Positions 20,340 to 26,776 of a DNA stretch of 61,682 nucleotides are shown one piece after another. This DNA comes from Mycoplasmatota bacterium (lineage in GTDB: Bacteria; Bacillota_I; Bacilli_A; Acholeplasmatales; Acholeplasmataceae): contig JANKMU010000010.1 in assembly GCA_024650045.1 (NCBI GenBank), positions 1 through 61,682 on the forward strand, read 5' to 3'. Within the stretch, counting starts at the first letter, position 1, and every line of letters begins with the position of its first letter. A program made the translations under genes and the position numbers. The notes below the pieces were generated by a model, which made no database searches, was not told the origin of the DNA, and was given only the letters and a program-made list of their open reading frames with translations.

Positions 20340-22019
20340 TTAGTCATGTCCTCCATATAATATCAAATCTTGAGCTGGCATATGTATATAATCAGATATA
20401 ATAGTCATCTCTTTATCCAAGTACCACATATTGAAATCATTTACAATTGAATAGTCAATCTTAGTTCCCCAAACTAAATCTTCTTGGTGAGCTAATGTCC
20501 ATGACTCATAGAAGGTCGCATCAACAGGTTTATGACGGTCAAACGTGTCATTCAAACTTAAAAGACCATACTGGTTTCTACCATGAACGAAAAGTCTATT
20601 TTCTGTTGTGAATACATAGGTTGCGAAATGTCTCATAATATTCGCTGTATACTCAACGTATTCACCTTCATTAAGATCATATCTTTCTGTAATATCAATA
20701 GGATAGGATGATGTCCAGGTAGTTCCATCCCCAAGTTGTCCATTTCTATTGTCTCCCCACATAAAGACTCTATGCTGTGAAGTTATGACAATAGTTTGGA
20801 ACCCCGAAGCCCTAACCCAAGTAACAAACTCATCTTGATTAAGAGGAATTATTGGATTTACACAAATTGGCCATGGATTATAATATGGTGCTAAATAACC
20901 AATTTGTCCACGACCGTTCCATCCCATAGCAATGACACGGTGATGTGATGTTAAAAGCATGTTATGATGTACACCAGCGGTGATTTGGATTAATGTTTCA
21001 TCGGGTTCAAGACCTAGATTGGCAGTGACATCTACTGGGTATGGGCGATTCGATCGAGTTCCATCACCAACAGATCCATCATAGTTATATCCCCAACCGA
21101 AGAATCGCTTATAATTCGATAGTGCCATGATATTCCCCCAAGCACCAACAACTTCTACAAGATACTCTCCATCCTGAAGTCCAAAGTTAGCAGTAATATC
21201 TACTGGTAAAATTTGATCATACCATGTACCGTTACCAATTTGTCCACGCATACCCCACCCCCAAGACAACACATGGTGATTTGAAGTAAGAACCATTGAG
21301 TGATTTGATGAGAGTGAAATTAAAGTCGCATGCTCATTTACTTCTAATCCTAAAAATGGTGTTATATCTAAAGGTAAAGCTTGATTGGTTCTTGTTCCAT
21401 TACCAATTTGTCCATAGCGGTTATATCCCCAAGTAAAGACACGATGATTAGATGATAAAGCCATTAGATGTGAATCCCCTGTTGAAATATCAACAATCAT
21501 TTCTCCTTCATCTAAATCAAAAAATGATGTCACATTTTCAGGAAGTAAGCGATTAGCAAATATACCATTAGCTAATTGTCCCTCAAGTCCGAATCCCCAA
21601 GTGAATACTTCGCCTTGAGGTCCTAGTGCGACTCCGTGGTGCGCACCTCCTAACAATTTTTTAAGTTTGCCACTTCTAATCAAAAAAGATAACTGATAGG
21701 ATGGTAATACCCACTCATCGGATAATTTACCAGTATTTACGTAATTAACGACATGAATTAAATCTTGCATTGGCATTTGTAATGCTTGTTCTAATGTTGC
21801 TATGTTGAGATCCTCAGAAACAATCAATGCCAAGCGCATATGCTGTGTATTTACCCCATATGTCTTCGCAAGCTTGGTGACTTCTCTCATATCATGTGTA
21901 CTAGAAAATATTCCTATTGGGTGAGCTTGTTTATCTGCCTTTGCAGAAACTGAAAAAGAACTAGATGCGCTAAAAATAACAAGGATACAAAGAAGTAAAG
22001 TTAATACTATTTTTTTCAT
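20340..22019 (-). CDS. Secreted RCC1-like beta-propeller protein
   Basis: 559 residues from the ATG at 22019, chosen because AAGGGG precedes it; eight extra residues upstream lack a ribosome site. It begins with a signal peptide (MKKIVLTLLLCILVIF...) with a likely cleavage after AKA. About seven RCC1-type repeats of roughly 50 residues follow, with cores such as VFTWGYNRYGQIGNGT, enough for one propeller blade ring. It has no lipobox or anchor, so it is probably released or held by partners. RCC1 repeats bind proteins; in bacteria such secreted copies are of unknown role. Single gene with its own terminator. Confidence 0.82.
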   Translation of the reverse strand: MKKIVLTLLLCILVIFSASSSFSVSAKADKQAHPIGIFSSTHDMREVTKLAKTYGVNTQHMRLALIVSEDLNIATLEQALQMPMQDLIHVVNYVNTGKLSDEWVLPSYQLSFLIRSGKLKKLLGGAHHGVALGPQGEVFTWGFGLEGQLANGIFANRLLPENVTSFFDLDEGEMIVDISTGDSHLMALSSNHRVFTWGYNRYGQIGNGTRTNQALPLDITPFLGLEVNEHATLISLSSNHSMVLTSNHHVLSWGWGMRGQIGNGTWYDQILPVDITANFGLQDGEYLVEVVGAWGNIMALSNYKRFFGWGYNYDGSVGDGTRSNRPYPVDVTANLGLEPDETLIQITAGVHHNMLLTSHHRVIAMGWNGRGQIGYLAPYYNPWPICVNPIIPLNQDEFVTWVRASGFQTIVITSQHRVFMWGDNRNGQLGDGTTWTSSYPIDITERYDLNEGEYVEYTANIMRHFATYVFTTENRLFVHGRNQYGLLSLNDTFDRHKPVDATFYESWTLAHQEDLVWGTKIDYSIVNDFNMWYLDKEMTIISDYIHMPAQDLILYGGHD

Positions 22020-22078
22020 TTTCAATACCCCTTCTTGATGCATAAATAATTTAGACTCCTTTCTTTAGAATATGAAAA

Positions 22079-22132: not shown

Positions 22133-22539
22133 CTTCTTTATATCAAATTTAATCTGTAATGTCAATATAATGCAATAAATTATTAACACTGCAAGCATAT
22201 CTGTTTACTAGAATTAAAACTTTGTGATACTCGGTTATATGATTTTCGATTGAAAAAACAAGCAAGATATTCATTATTGAGATGCACCAATGACATCGAG
22301 AGTTCTTATTATATATATATAAATATATGTCACATAGATATTACAAAATGTTTTCAATATTATACTTACATATCATATGTGATACAATGTAGACAAAGAT
22401 ATTTGACTTAGATATCAAAGAACTTTACACCGATAGATGACATAATCATGCATATGCTTATTGAGTATTAAAAGAGGTTTGTTAGTATAAGTAGAGATAA
22501 GTGCTAAATTAAAGCTATCAACAAAAGGGGAGAAAAAAT

Positions 22540-25227
22540 ATGAAGAATTTGTTCAAGAAATCATGGTTTATTGGAACATTAATTATTGGCTTAATTGTTA
22601 TCGTTTTTTTCATTAATTTATGGATTATGTCATTAAAATTGACACAACCCTATGAAGATGATAATTTTTGGTCATTAGCAAGCAACTTAGCTCAGGGGGA
22701 TTATGTTAATATTTTCGCCTTCATTTTGACTCTGGTGTTTTATATTTCTATTGTTCCTGTATTGTTATCTGGTTTAAGTTTCTTCAAGAAAAACAGTTGG
22801 GGCTTTATAATTGCTGTGACATATTTTCTAGGATTTGCTACTACATTAATCGTTTTCCAATCCGCTTTTAATTATATGTCTGCATTTGCAATAGTCTTAA
22901 TTGTTTTTAACATTATCTTTATGATGGGTACCTTTGTCTTAATTATATTTAGAAAAAGAACTCTGGATGTCACAAAAGACCAACAAGAAAATGAAAACAC
23001 ACTCAATCTAGAACAAACTAAACTTCCATTGAATGTATTAATTATCGATATCGTTTCAATCCTTGTATTTTTGACAACATTTTTTATTCCGCTATATGCA
23101 ATCGTTGAATTTCAGTCTGTTACAAATGCAACCATTATTCATGTTTTGTTATATGGAGATACAAGTATTGAACTTATCACCTACTTCCTAATCAATTTCA
23201 CTATCTTTTTAGGTATATTCTTATACTTTGCTAGTTGTATATCTAGTTATTTCTTTGACAAAGAGCTATTTATCAATAAATCAAAAGCTTTGATTGCTTC
23301 TACTTTTATAGCAACATTATTATTTTTCCTGACAGGATTAGCGCTATACATGTATTACACACTTGATGGTGAGATTGCACAAACAGTTTCGTTTATCCCA
23401 CTTTCAATGATGGGTGTCGTTGTTTTCATATATGCTGTTTTTAAGGGTCAATATAATGCCTTAATTCAAAAATCTTATGTGGATACAAAAGCTAAGTATG
23501 CTGAAATAGAACCACTGATATATGTTTTCATATTGACAGCAGTTACTGTATTGATGTTGTTCCTTAAGCTTATTAAAATTAGAATTACCTCTGGTCTTAG
23601 TACATACTTCGTTGATTTAACAGGTATTGATATTTTAAGAGACTATGCACTATTAGATCCTGGTTACCGTATTATTGCATACATTCTTGTTGTAATGCTT
23701 ATTTCTATTGGTCTTTGTTTGATTATTGCTGTAGCTAGTTATTTATCTAAGTATAAGTATTTTAATTCCGTTGTTAAATTTGCAACAGCAACCAATGTTT
23801 TCTTTGTATTTATCATCGCTATATCAGGATACTACTTCCAAATTGCAAAAGAAATCAACCAAGTTGTTATATTAGATATATTTAGTTTATACGGGATTAA
23901 TTTGCCCAATCTGATTGATTATAATTACTCAATCAGTACCGATGCTATTTATGCCTTAATCGCATCTGTCTTTGTATTAATCATCATGTTTGTAAGAAAA
24001 GCATTTGATAGAGATGAAATGAGTTTAGTAGAGGGTAATGTTTTACCTTTAAATGGACAAGCAGATTCAAGTGGAGCATCATCACTAAGTGATATAGAAG
24101 ATGAGATTGATCATGAATTTGATCCATGTCCAGCATTTACTGAACTAGACTCAAAAGTTGATCTGTTTAAACAAGAATTAGATAAGCGAAAAGTACTCAA
24201 AACAACTGAAAAAACACTTAATGATCTTGTTCATTTTATCGTAGAATATGCGAGAAACTCAAGACTTCATCTATCTTATACACCTGAACATATAGCGGCT
24301 TTCGTTGCAGGCTTAGGCGCAAGCAAACTATCAATTCTACAAGGTATGTCCGGAACAGGAAAAACCAGTTTACCTAAGATTTTTTCAGAGGCTATATATG
24401 GTAATTGTGACATTATAGAAGTTGAATCTTCATGGAAAGATAAAAATGAATTATTAGGATATTATAACGAGTTTTCAATGAAATATACACCTAAAAAATT
24501 CACATTAGCATTATATAAAGCAGCACTTAATCAAGAGATTGTTACCTTTATACTTCTTGATGAAATGAATCTATCTAGAATCGAGTATTATTTCTCAGAT
24601 TTTCTATCACTGATGGAAAATGAGGAGAATCAAAGAGAAATCAAATTGATTAATATTAAACTCAATAGAAAAGATAAGGAACAAGAAATTGAATACTTAG
24701 CTTTAGATCATGGGCATACATTAAAAGTTCCACCAAATGTTTGGTTTATCGGTACAGCAAATCGTGATGAATCAACATTTGTGATCTCAGATAAAGTATA
24801 TGACCGTTCTCATACGATGAACTTTACTAAGCGTGCTCCTAAAGTTAGAAACTACTCAAGCCCTATTTCAAGGCAATATTATGATTATGAAACGATTAAC
24901 AAACTATTTACTGAAGCAAAACAAAAAGGTAATTTCGATGCTGAAAGCAACGAACTTATTAAAAGTGTTGAGGCATTACTTGAACCATATAATATTTCAT
25001 TTGGGAATCGTATCTTAAAACAAATCGAAGATTTTGTTAATATTTATAAAGAGTGTTTTTCAAATGAAGATGTAGAAAATGAAGCGATTGAAAAGATTTT
25101 ATTAAGTAAGGTAGTTGCTAAACTTGAAGTTAAAGCGATTGATGACAAAGAAAAACTTGAAATGGAATTTGAAAAACTGAACTTAAATCAATGTGCTGAC
25201 TTTATTAGACGTCTTGATAATGAATAA
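22540..25227 (+). CDS. Polytopic membrane protein with C-terminal McrB-like AAA+ ATPase
   Basis: 895 residues. The first 490 or so contain about 12 membrane helices (for example 10-30, 57-79, 88-107, 113-136, 166-188, 217-237, 250-272, 376-401 and 468-486). An acidic linker (about 510-545) leads to an AAA+ domain of the McrB/GTPase-like clade: Walker A GMSGTGKT (602-609), Walker B ILLDE (Asp674, Glu675), GTANRDES (738-745) and DKVYDR (751-756). Known McrB proteins are soluble with DNA-binding N-termini; here that part is replaced by a membrane domain. The stop overlaps the next gene, a DUF2357/McrC-like partner, by 8 bp. Probably the motor of a membrane-bound defence or stress complex; that role is inferred. 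Confidence 0.85.
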   Translation: MKNLFKKSWFIGTLIIGLIVIVFFINLWIMSLKLTQPYEDDNFWSLASNLAQGDYVNIFAFILTLVFYISIVPVLLSGLSFFKKNSWGFIIAVTYFLGFATTLIVFQSAFNYMSAFAIVLIVFNIIFMMGTFVLIIFRKRTLDVTKDQQENENTLNLEQTKLPLNVLIIDIVSILVFLTTFFIPLYAIVEFQSVTNATIIHVLLYGDTSIELITYFLINFTIFLGIFLYFASCISSYFFDKELFINKSKALIASTFIATLLFFLTGLALYMYYTLDGEIAQTVSFIPLSMMGVVVFIYAVFKGQYNALIQKSYVDTKAKYAEIEPLIYVFILTAVTVLMLFLKLIKIRITSGLSTYFVDLTGIDILRDYALLDPGYRIIAYILVVMLISIGLCLIIAVASYLSKYKYFNSVVKFATATNVFFVFIIAISGYYFQIAKEINQVVILDIFSLYGINLPNLIDYNYSISTDAIYALIASVFVLIIMFVRKAFDRDEMSLVEGNVLPLNGQADSSGASSLSDIEDEIDHEFDPCPAFTELDSKVDLFKQELDKRKVLKTTEKTLNDLVHFIVEYARNSRLHLSYTPEHIAAFVAGLGASKLSILQGMSGTGKTSLPKIFSEAIYGNCDIIEVESSWKDKNELLGYYNEFSMKYTPKKFTLALYKAALNQEIVTFILLDEMNLSRIEYYFSDFLSLMENEENQREIKLINIKLNRKDKEQEIEYLALDHGHTLKVPPNVWFIGTANRDESTFVISDKVYDRSHTMNFTKRAPKVRNYSSPISRQYYDYETINKLFTEAKQKGNFDAESNELIKSVEALLEPYNISFGNRILKQIEDFVNIYKECFSNEDVENEAIEKILLSKVVAKLEVKAIDDKEKLEMEFEKLNLNQCADFIRRLDNE

Positions 25228-26776
25228 AAACATTAACAAATCAAGGTTAGAGGAATATAATCGCTTCTCTTCACTTTTAGAAGGTATTCAAGAGTTTGTC
25301 AAAAAGCACCAAATCATATCTTATATTGAATTTGATTACTATGTCGTTCATGATATGACATTATTTTCAATTGAACCAGACTTTGATTTTGAAAAGTTAA
25401 ATGAAAAGATTCAACGTATCAAAAAATCAACTTCAGCAATTAAAAGAATATTCAATAAACCAATCATTGTTTTAAAGGATTCTGATGATGTGTTACCAGT
25501 TGAAAATGCACGTGTTATTAACCAAAACACTTTGTTGCATTTAGCTAATCATGGTCAATATGTATCAAATATAACAAAAAAAGGCATTAAGCCTAGAAAA
25601 TTACTAACAAGAATCTATGAAGATGATTATAGTATTTATGAAAATGTTATCTTCTGTAATTTTATTGATGAAATCCTATCTATCATTAAGAAAAATAGAA
25701 GAACATTAAATAGTCTATTATATGCTAGTAACATTATGAGTTTTAACTTGCTAGAAAAAACGAATCATTTGAATTACTTTTTAGCTTTAGGTAAACTACA
25801 TACTGGTTATATTAGAGACTTTAGTCAATATTTTAATTTATCTAAAGAAATGCTAAATGAACTATCATTGATCAGCTATGCGATTAATCCGAGGTTAAAA
25901 AAACCTATTTATCGTAAAAACATCAATCGAAACAGACATTTAACACTTAAAAAAACCAATATCTTTTTGATGCAAAAAGATTATCATTTGGTTTATATAA
26001 CATATAAGTACTTATTAAGTAATCAAACTAAAGTCGAAACAGATGAATCATCTATTGATTTTGATTCTATGAAAGAAAATTATATGATGTATGTTCAATT
26101 GCTTACAATTTTCTCAGTTGGACACTTTAACTTTGAAATTGATCCTCAATTTAAAATGAATTTGAGATCTCTAGATATTACTTTTATATTTAAAAAATGG
26201 AAATTGGAAATCTTTAATACAAACAAAAAGGAAATATTACTTCATTTTAAAAAAGATAAAACTTATAAAATCATACTCATTGTTAATGAAAACAATGTCA
26301 AAGCATTCAATTATTATAAAAAGAATTATGATGTTGATGAAGTTATTATTGTCAATCAATTTGATGAAGGTTATATTGATAGAGATGATGTCCATATCAG
26401 TATGGAAGATATTGATTCTTTTAGAAGAATTCAACAAATCGTTCTTAGAGGCATGATCTATTCTGATACTAAAAGAGATGTATGTCCGTTCTGTGGTGGA
26501 AAACTTCATAAAGATCCTTATCATAATTTTTATCAATGTCATGAATGCATGACACAGATTAAGGAGCGTGTTTGTGATGTAACTGATAAGTCGTTTTTCT
26601 ATACCGATATTGCTCACCATAAAAGTTATGTGGCTAGCAAATCTAGTTTTAAGCATGATGAAGACTGGTACTATGAAAAACAAGTTGAGTCTTTAATGTA
26701 TTTTAGAAATATCACTAAGATTAATCATAGTGGTGAAGTCATTTGTCCATATTGTAATAAAATACATAAAAGCTAG
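25220..26776 (+). CDS. DUF2357/McrC-like protein with zinc-ribbon C-terminus
   Basis: 518 residues from the ATG at 25220, which overlaps the ATPase gene by 8 bp; a longer start at 25193 has no ribosome site either. The segment RKLLTRIYEDDYSIYENVIF (about 126-145) matches the DUF2357 region shared by McrC relatives. In the nuclease position, LRSLDITFIFKKWKLEIFN (about 315-333) keeps the strand pattern but I see no D/E-x-K triad, so nuclease activity may be lost. The C-terminus adds CPFC (422-425), CHEC (440-443) and CPYC (509-512), probable zinc ribbons. Partner of the membrane AAA+ protein upstream; a strong terminator follows. Confidence 0.75.
   Translation: MNKNINKSRLEEYNRFSSLLEGIQEFVKKHQIISYIEFDYYVVHDMTLFSIEPDFDFEKLNEKIQRIKKSTSAIKRIFNKPIIVLKDSDDVLPVENARVINQNTLLHLANHGQYVSNITKKGIKPRKLLTRIYEDDYSIYENVIFCNFIDEILSIIKKNRRTLNSLLYASNIMSFNLLEKTNHLNYFLALGKLHTGYIRDFSQYFNLSKEMLNELSLISYAINPRLKKPIYRKNINRNRHLTLKKTNIFLMQKDYHLVYITYKYLLSNQTKVETDESSIDFDSMKENYMMYVQLLTIFSVGHFNFEIDPQFKMNLRSLDITFIFKKWKLEIFNTNKKEILLHFKKDKTYKIILIVNENNVKAFNYYKKNYDVDEVIIVNQFDEGYIDRDDVHISMEDIDSFRRIQQIVLRGMIYSDTKRDVCPFCGGKLHKDPYHNFYQCHECMTQIKERVCDVTDKSFFYTDIAHHKSYVASKSSFKHDEDWYYEKQVESLMYFRNITKINHSGEVICPYCNKIHKS

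What the first reader, a model, noticed from the sequence alone, without database searches (positions are those of the whole stretch)
22540..26776. Membrane-embedded McrB-like AAA+ ATPase paired with an McrC-like protein
The ATPase keeps the McrB-clade Walker A, Walker B and GTANRDES motifs but carries about 12 membrane helices in place of a DNA-recognition domain. The coupled downstream gene has a DUF2357/McrC-like region. Classical McrBC cuts modified DNA in the cytoplasm; tying the motor to the membrane suggests sensing at the membrane or an abortive membrane response. I know no described system with this layout.
Basis: partly seen in the sequence, partly recalled or inferred. Interest (0 to 1): 0.8.

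Follow-up and report, generated by a model that had tools for sequence, protein, structure and literature searches.

The report
Membrane-embedded McrB motor with dead-nuclease McrC
Two coupled bacterial genes encode a relative of the McrBC DNA-cutting machine in which the motor is built into the membrane by twelve helices and the cutting partner has lost its cutting site; the pair moves between species and is probably a membrane-based defence or surface device not yet described.

Summary
Gene A (22540-25227, 895 aa) has 12 membrane helices, N- and C-terminus inside, joined to an intact McrB-type AAA+ domain. Gene B (25220-26776, 518 aa) is an McrC homologue. The pair lies in an Acholeplasmataceae-type genome. 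I found 73 loci in other genomes, all Bacillota/Mycoplasmatota; wherever the upstream DNA is held, A sits directly before B.
New here: (1) the signature is N-x-D (GTANRDES), not the N-x-x-D of classical McrB, so A belongs to the branch with CoCoNuT and CoCoPALM; (2) A is a separate clade (SH-aLRT 100), nearest to a CoCoNuT-type protein; (3) the membrane domain is a 4-helix unit repeated three times, and shorter clostridial forms lack exactly the first unit; (4) B keeps the McrC stalk and a nuclease-like fold without conserved catalytic residues, plus two Zn sites; (5) the pair is patchy (10 of 20 genomes in the genus) and horizontally transferred (AU p = 4.7e-5).
It is not in defence islands and has no partner nuclease. 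I read it as a membrane-tethered NxD McrBC motor that cannot cut DNA with B. An immune role is the best guess (about 0.4); a cell-surface role like CoCoPALM is the main rival. New variant of a known kind.

The parts
22527..22532 (+). Shine-Dalgarno-like GGGGAG, 7 nt before the ATG of gene A
   Evidence: read from sequence
22540..25227 (+). Gene A: 895-aa polytopic membrane protein with C-terminal McrB-type (NxD) AAA+ domain
22540..22995 (+). membrane repeat unit 1 (TM1-4, res 1-152); absent in ten 8-helix clostridial forms
23002..23487 (+). membrane repeat unit 2 (TM5-8, res 155-316)
23488..24009 (+). membrane repeat unit 3 (TM9-12, res 317-490)
24115..24150 (+). conserved cytoplasmic linker motif FDPCPAFTELDS (res 526-537), after a disordered linker 492-524
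24205..25209 (+). AAA+ domain (res 556-890)
   Evidence: PADLOC PDC-M26A E = 1.3e-51
24343..24369 (+). Walker A GMSGTGKTS
   Evidence: invariant in 53 members
24550..24567 (+). Walker B ILLDEM
   Evidence: D674 and E675 invariant in 53 members
24751..24774 (+). GTANRDES, the N-x-D signature followed by E
   Evidence: definition in PMC11090510
25220..26776 (+). Gene B: 518-aa McrC homologue, start ATG overlapping the stop of A (ATGAATAA)
25313..26032 (+). helical stalk region, DUF2357/McrC-like (res 41-280 in GTG numbering)
   Evidence: 6ut5 McrC Z 8.5 over res 63-276; homology to DUF2357 proteins
26054..26476 (+). nuclease-like fold without conserved PD-(D/E)xK residues (res 288-428)
26483..26548 (+). 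zinc ribbon, C431/C434/C449/C452 (invariant)
26573..26767 (+). second probable zinc site, C461/C518/C521/H525

Best explanation
The pair is a stand-alone, membrane-tethered branch of the N-x-D McrBC motors. Shown by sequence or model: twelve helices, built as three 4-helix units, hold the AAA+ domain on the cytoplasmic face in the place where classical McrB carries its recognition domain. The AAA+ catalytic residues are intact. B carries the McrC stalk that in McrBC enters and stimulates the ring, a nuclease-like fold with no conserved catalytic residues, and two zinc sites. Inferred: six A subunits form a ring under the membrane, B docks as the asymmetric activator, and the fast-changing membrane domain recognises or engages something in or at the membrane. 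Nucleotide hydrolysis then drives a mechanical action on a substrate bound by the B zinc ribbons (entering nucleic acid, or a protein) or on the membrane itself, not DNA cleavage by B. Because the cassette is patchy, self-contained and horizontally exchanged, its most likely role is an accessory defence against phages or other mobile DNA acting at the cell membrane.
For: A directly upstream of B at every locus where the upstream DNA is held, gap about -37 to +13 nt in 61 of 62 measured (49 in one), and next gene on the opposite strand in 27 of 68 loci, so two genes are the whole unit. N-x-D motif in all 53 A proteins checked; separate clade, SH-aLRT 100, nearest a CoCoNuT-type protein at 83. 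B shares the FRRxQ plus zinc-ribbon end with that protein's partner (segment E = 1.5e-16). AAA core 75% identical across the family, membrane helices 26%: constant motor, variable membrane domain. Half of the genus has the pair. The sister genus, a clade in rpoB, is broken up in A (AU p = 4.7e-5) and B (p = 0.016). Two families 59% alike in RpoB are 59-64% alike in B, although B otherwise diverges much faster.
Against: No defence-island association: neighbours are mixed housekeeping genes with only single defence hits (no matched control was run). No relative of B in 2.9 million viral contigs. No partner nuclease or toxin. Variable flanks are weak evidence of mobility, since an ordinary ABC-F gene next to the pair also lies in different surroundings across the genus. 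Other membrane-anchored N-x-D McrBs in this class sit in surface-protein operons. Ring formation, A-B contact and zinc binding are inferred from homology.
Confidence: 0.4

Rival explanations
1. Envelope device: like CoCoPALM, the pair uses an N-x-D McrBC motor to remodel, extract or help export membrane or surface proteins; it is an accessory surface trait, not immunity.
For: In the same class, 1-helix N-x-D McrBs sit with SipW-like peptidases and TasA-like secreted proteins, and 4-helix ones with SipW-like, secreted and ABC-transporter genes. In one genome (L245 = L090) the pair lies 126 nt upstream of such an operon, and in G109 one lies on the same contig about 6.5 kb away. MoxR-type ATPases, a neighbouring AAA clade, remodel proteins (own knowledge).
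Against: In the about 8-kb flanks of 74 loci only one has a SipW-like gene and none a TasA-like gene by this search; two proximities are about what chance gives. The AAA tree puts A nearer a soluble CoCoNuT-type protein than CoCoPALM. The 4-helix domain of the surface-operon McrBs is not detectably related to the A repeat units.
Confidence: 0.3
2. Membrane-tethered Type IV restriction: B or an unlinked nuclease cuts modified DNA or RNA as it enters through the membrane.
For: Homology to McrBC/CoCoNuT; B keeps a nuclease-like fold and nucleic-acid-type zinc ribbons (weak hits).
Against: No conserved acidic pair plus lysine in the nuclease-like fold over 66 B proteins; no conserved neighbouring nuclease, whereas CoCoNuTs with dead McrC nucleases always have one nearby (PMC11090510).
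Confidence: 0.12
3. Housekeeping AAA+ chaperone or transporter regulator of these bacteria.
For: Strong purifying selection; chromosomal, among housekeeping genes.
Against: Absent from half of the genus, including genomes 97-99% complete, and horizontally exchanged; one frameshifted A gene and one internal A-B deletion fusion show that loss is tolerated.
Confidence: 0.12

Closest known systems
CoCoNuT (coiled-coil nuclease tandem) CnuB/CnuC, Bell et al. 2024, PMC11090510
   Same: N-x-D McrB motor followed by E or D; partner with DUF2357 stalk, (often dead) PD-(D/E)xK fold and CPxC zinc ribbons; nearest AAA relative in the tree is a CoCoNuT-type protein
   Different: 12 or 8 membrane helices replace the coiled coil; no adjacent HEPN or other nuclease, no CnuH/CnuE/TerY genes; two genes only
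CoCoPALM (same paper)
   Same: N-x-D McrB fused to a membrane domain, DUF2357 partner, present in the same genome (contig C22)
   Different: CoCoPALM has one helix plus coiled coil and lies with SipW-like signal peptidases and pilin/TasA-like proteins; here 12 helices, no coiled coil, no such neighbours; separate AAA clade
McrBC Type IV restriction enzyme (E. coli K-12)
   Same: coupled mcrB-mcrC order, AAA+ motor and stalk activator; structural match of both proteins
   Different: N-x-x-D motif and methylcytosine-recognition domain in McrB, active nuclease in McrC
PADLOC candidate PDC-M26A
   Same: profile matches the AAA domain (E = 1.3e-51); the family is listed only as a candidate
   Different: profile also matches the CoCoPALM ATPase, and B matches no PADLOC model, so it does not identify this system

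Membership tests
McrBC, N-x-D branch | AAA+ of the MoxR/McrB clade with Walker A, Walker B and N-x-D (E/D) signature | tested here: met
   GTANRDES in A, GTANR/KDES in all 53 members; E. coli McrB has NTAD
McrBC, N-x-D branch | adjacent McrC/DUF2357 partner | tested here: met
   B homologous to DUF2357 proteins and matches McrC structures; adjacency at all loci where upstream DNA is held
Classical Type IV McrBC | N-x-x-D motif | tested here: not met
   N-x-D
Classical Type IV McrBC | active PD-(D/E)xK nuclease in McrC | tested here: not met
   no conserved catalytic acids and lysine in res 288-428 of 66 B proteins; prediction, not assay
CoCoNuT | coiled coil fused to McrB or in a separate gene | tested here: not met
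   model shows only a disordered 40-residue linker between membrane and AAA domains; no conserved third gene
CoCoNuT | active McrC nuclease, or an adjacent HEPN or other nuclease | tested here: not met
[quoted passage not shown]
   12 helices, no coiled coil
CoCoPALM | linked signal-peptidase/pilin-type genes | tested here: not met
   SipW-like gene near 1 of 74 loci, TasA-like near none by this search
Anti-phage defence system | enrichment in defence islands | tested here: inconclusive
   184 neighbours scanned, only single defence hits; no matched control
Anti-phage defence system | protection against phage | not testable with these tools
   needs experiment

The most novel reading that the evidence does not exclude
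A previously unrecognised class of membrane-embedded McrBC motors: a ring of 12-helix subunits senses or grips incoming mobile DNA or its carrier at the membrane and acts mechanically, with a nuclease-dead McrC as activator, so that restriction works without cutting.
Probability: 0.3. Interest if true: 0.85.

Novelty: new variant of a known kind. Interest (0 to 1): 0.6.

Why it matters
It would show that the McrBC motor has been moved from cytoplasmic DNA cutting to the membrane. Together with CoCoPALM and the 4-helix forms seen here, it suggests that N-x-D McrB motors form a broad set of membrane machines whose function nobody has tested. No N-x-D McrB has been characterised biochemically (PMC11090510), and this two-gene unit is small enough to clone.

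Tried and rejected
Pfam, NCBIfam and PDB sequence searches with single proteins gave only weak hits. Profile searches of PDB gave only zinc-ribbon lookalikes for B and nothing useful for A. The membrane domain matches no Pfam family above cut-off; one member has DUF4064 at E = 0.014 over the first 4-helix unit. I considered that the 4-helix repeat might be an artefact of hydrophobic composition: unrelated 4-helix segments reach probability 19 at most in hhalign against 83-90 for units 1-2 and 2-3, so I kept it; units 1-3 give only 23. I looked for an empty site in relatives that lack the pair: none was found, as gene order around the flanking genes is not conserved in the genus, so flank variability is not used as proof of mobility. 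I considered linkage with CoCoPALM loci (L245, G109): two cases, about chance. PDC-M26 is in no paper of the library. The membrane domain alone could not be folded (both jobs used), so its fold is untested.
Full report
OBSERVATION. The two ORFs are present as described. A is 895 aa. Kyte-Doolittle scanning gives 12 helices, and 10-12 are found in nearly all full-length relatives recovered from the order. Averaged over 53 members, net loop charge alternates: N-terminus +2.2, then -0.7, +2.2, +0.1, +0.75, -1.7, +1.0, -0.1, +0.8, -0.9, +2.8, -2.2. This is what a protein with both ends inside should show, so the AAA+ domain is cytoplasmic. B starts at ATG 25220, overlapping the stop of A (ATGAATAA); a GGGGAG ribosome-binding site precedes A.

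FAMILY. A search of 160 genomes of the order found B proper (E of 1e-39 or better) in 33, and a distant DUF2357-type paralogue in most others with a match. A scan of 84,980 species genomes returned 73 loci in Acholeplasmataceae, Anaeroplasmataceae, Izimaplasma, other Bacilli, Clostridia, Erysipelotrichaceae and Oscillospiraceae. None was found in viral contigs, and only AAA-domain relatives on plasmids and in two unannotated phage-labelled contigs. Wherever upstream sequence is held, A lies directly upstream of B; the gap is between about -37 and +13 nt in 61 of 62 loci. In 27 of 68 loci the next gene is on the other strand, so no third gene is needed.

THE MOTOR. Walker A, Walker B, the GTANRDES signature and the GNR motif are invariant or nearly so. 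The AlphaFold model (pLDDT 81) matches the MoxR/dynein/McrB clade, E. coli McrB at Z 15.0, 21% identity. The signature is N-x-D followed by E. Bell et al. 2024 (PMC11090510) use this deletion to define a branch of McrBC that contains CoCoNuT and CoCoPALM. In a tree of 56 AAA domains the A family is one clade (SH-aLRT 100), next to a CoCoNuT-type protein (83, long branches, so tentative), apart from CoCoPALM-like proteins and from cyanobacterial and proteobacterial CoCoNuT-type proteins.

THE MEMBRANE DOMAIN. Profile comparison shows a 4-helix unit repeated three times: units 1-2 probability 90, units 2-3 probability 83; 4-helix windows slid along the domain keep finding the same shift of four helices. 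Unrelated 4-helix segments from neighbouring transporters score 19 at most. Ten clostridial A proteins are about 100 residues shorter with about eight helices, and lack exactly unit 1. Membrane helices are 26% identical across the family, the AAA core 75%. No Pfam family covers the domain.

THE PARTNER. The model of B (pLDDT 83) matches McrC of Thermococcus gammatolerans (Z 8.5 over residues 63-276) and E. coli McrC (Foldseek probability 0.80; about 244 residues aligned, but with rmsd near 17, i.e. two domains at a different angle). Z below 13 for helical stalks is weak alone, but it agrees with sequence homology to DUF2357 proteins and to the partner of the CoCoNuT-type protein on MT835511 (stalk segment E = 6e-29; C-terminal FRRxQ plus zinc-ribbon segment E = 1.5e-16). 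Residues 288-428 have the helix-strands-helix-strand-helix order of a PD-(D/E)xK fold, with middling matches to Kpn2I, Ecl18kI and EcoT38I (Z 4.4-4.5). No conserved acidic pair with lysine is present in the relevant strands, so I predict it cannot cut. Invariant C431/C434/C449/C452 and near-invariant C461/C518/C521/H525 are two probable zinc sites.

DISTRIBUTION AND TRANSFER. Ten of 20 genomes of the genus carry the pair; some that lack it are 97-99% complete. In rpoB the sister genus g10 is a clade (SH-aLRT 97). In A and B it is not: a g1 genome (G036) groups with two g10 genomes at 100/100 (A) and 100/99 (B), and holding g10 together is rejected (AU p = 4.7e-5 for A, 0.016 for B). Two families 59% alike in RpoB are 59-64% alike in B, although B otherwise diverges much faster than RpoB. 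So the cassette has been transferred. Both genes are under purifying selection, yet broken copies exist: a frameshifted A in G022 and an in-frame deletion that fuses the A helices to the B end in G080.

SURROUNDINGS. Among 184 near neighbours no family recurs more than three times; they are mixed housekeeping genes with a few single defence hits (DRT, HEC-06, Type IV restriction). This does not support a defence island, though I ran no matched control. Flanks of an unrelated ABC-F gene also vary across the genus, so variable flanks are not used as evidence.

MECHANISM. Shown: architecture, intact motor residues, absence of conserved nuclease residues, two-gene unit, transfer. Inferred from McrBC: ring of A, B stalk in the pore as activator. 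Inferred from position and rate of change: the membrane domain is the recognition part. Speculative: the output. B probably does not cut, and no conserved third gene supplies a nuclease, so a mechanical action at the membrane is the simplest reading. An accessory immune role is my first choice (0.4), a surface role like CoCoPALM second (0.3).

KNOWN OR NEW. It is a member of the N-x-D McrBC branch, but fails defining features of CoCoNuT (coiled coil, nuclease), CoCoPALM (single helix, signal peptidases) and classical McrBC (N-x-x-D, active nuclease). The passages of Bell et al. that I read do not mention a polytopic form; their supplementary files could not be read here, so it may be listed there without comment.

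Noticed in passing
L034, L035 (own genome, contig C22): Two tandem CoCoPALM-type loci: 1-helix N-x-D McrB ATPases (504 and 511 aa), a DUF2357 partner seen after the second, SipW-like peptidases, TasA-like secreted proteins and giant secreted proteins (2347 aa in one); EAL/GGDEF proteins upstream.
   Followed up: partly
L243-L254: A further N-x-D McrB type with four membrane helices (about 600 aa) plus a 360-480 aa partner, mostly in operons with SipW-like peptidase, secreted proteins, an ABC transporter and a secreted protein of about 810 aa; conserved across a Bacilli family. I know of no description.
   Followed up: partly
L245:106-12902 (same contig as L090): An A-B pair lies 126 nt upstream of, and on the same strand as, one of these 4-helix McrB surface operons.
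   Followed up: yes
L065:4694-6007 (G080; = L136): In-frame deletion joins the A membrane helices to the C-terminal half of B: probable decay product, or assembly error.
   Followed up: no
L178 (MT835511.1): A contig deposited as 'Bacteriophage sp.' carries a CoCoNuT-type operon; it may be bacterial DNA or a prophage cargo.
   Followed up: no
L050-L055, L092-L099: In six Anaeroplasmataceae genomes B is followed by the same two unknown genes (about 168 aa, and about 220 aa with two helices), possible local accessories.
   Followed up: no
L177:5768-9964: Two N-x-D AAA proteins (403 and 431 aa, 1-2 helices) flank one DUF2357-like partner, followed by three large membrane-anchored proteins.
   Followed up: no
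window 20340-22043 (-): Secreted RCC1-repeat protein (567 aa) divergent from gene A; in the genus only one weak relative (38% over part of it).
   Followed up: no
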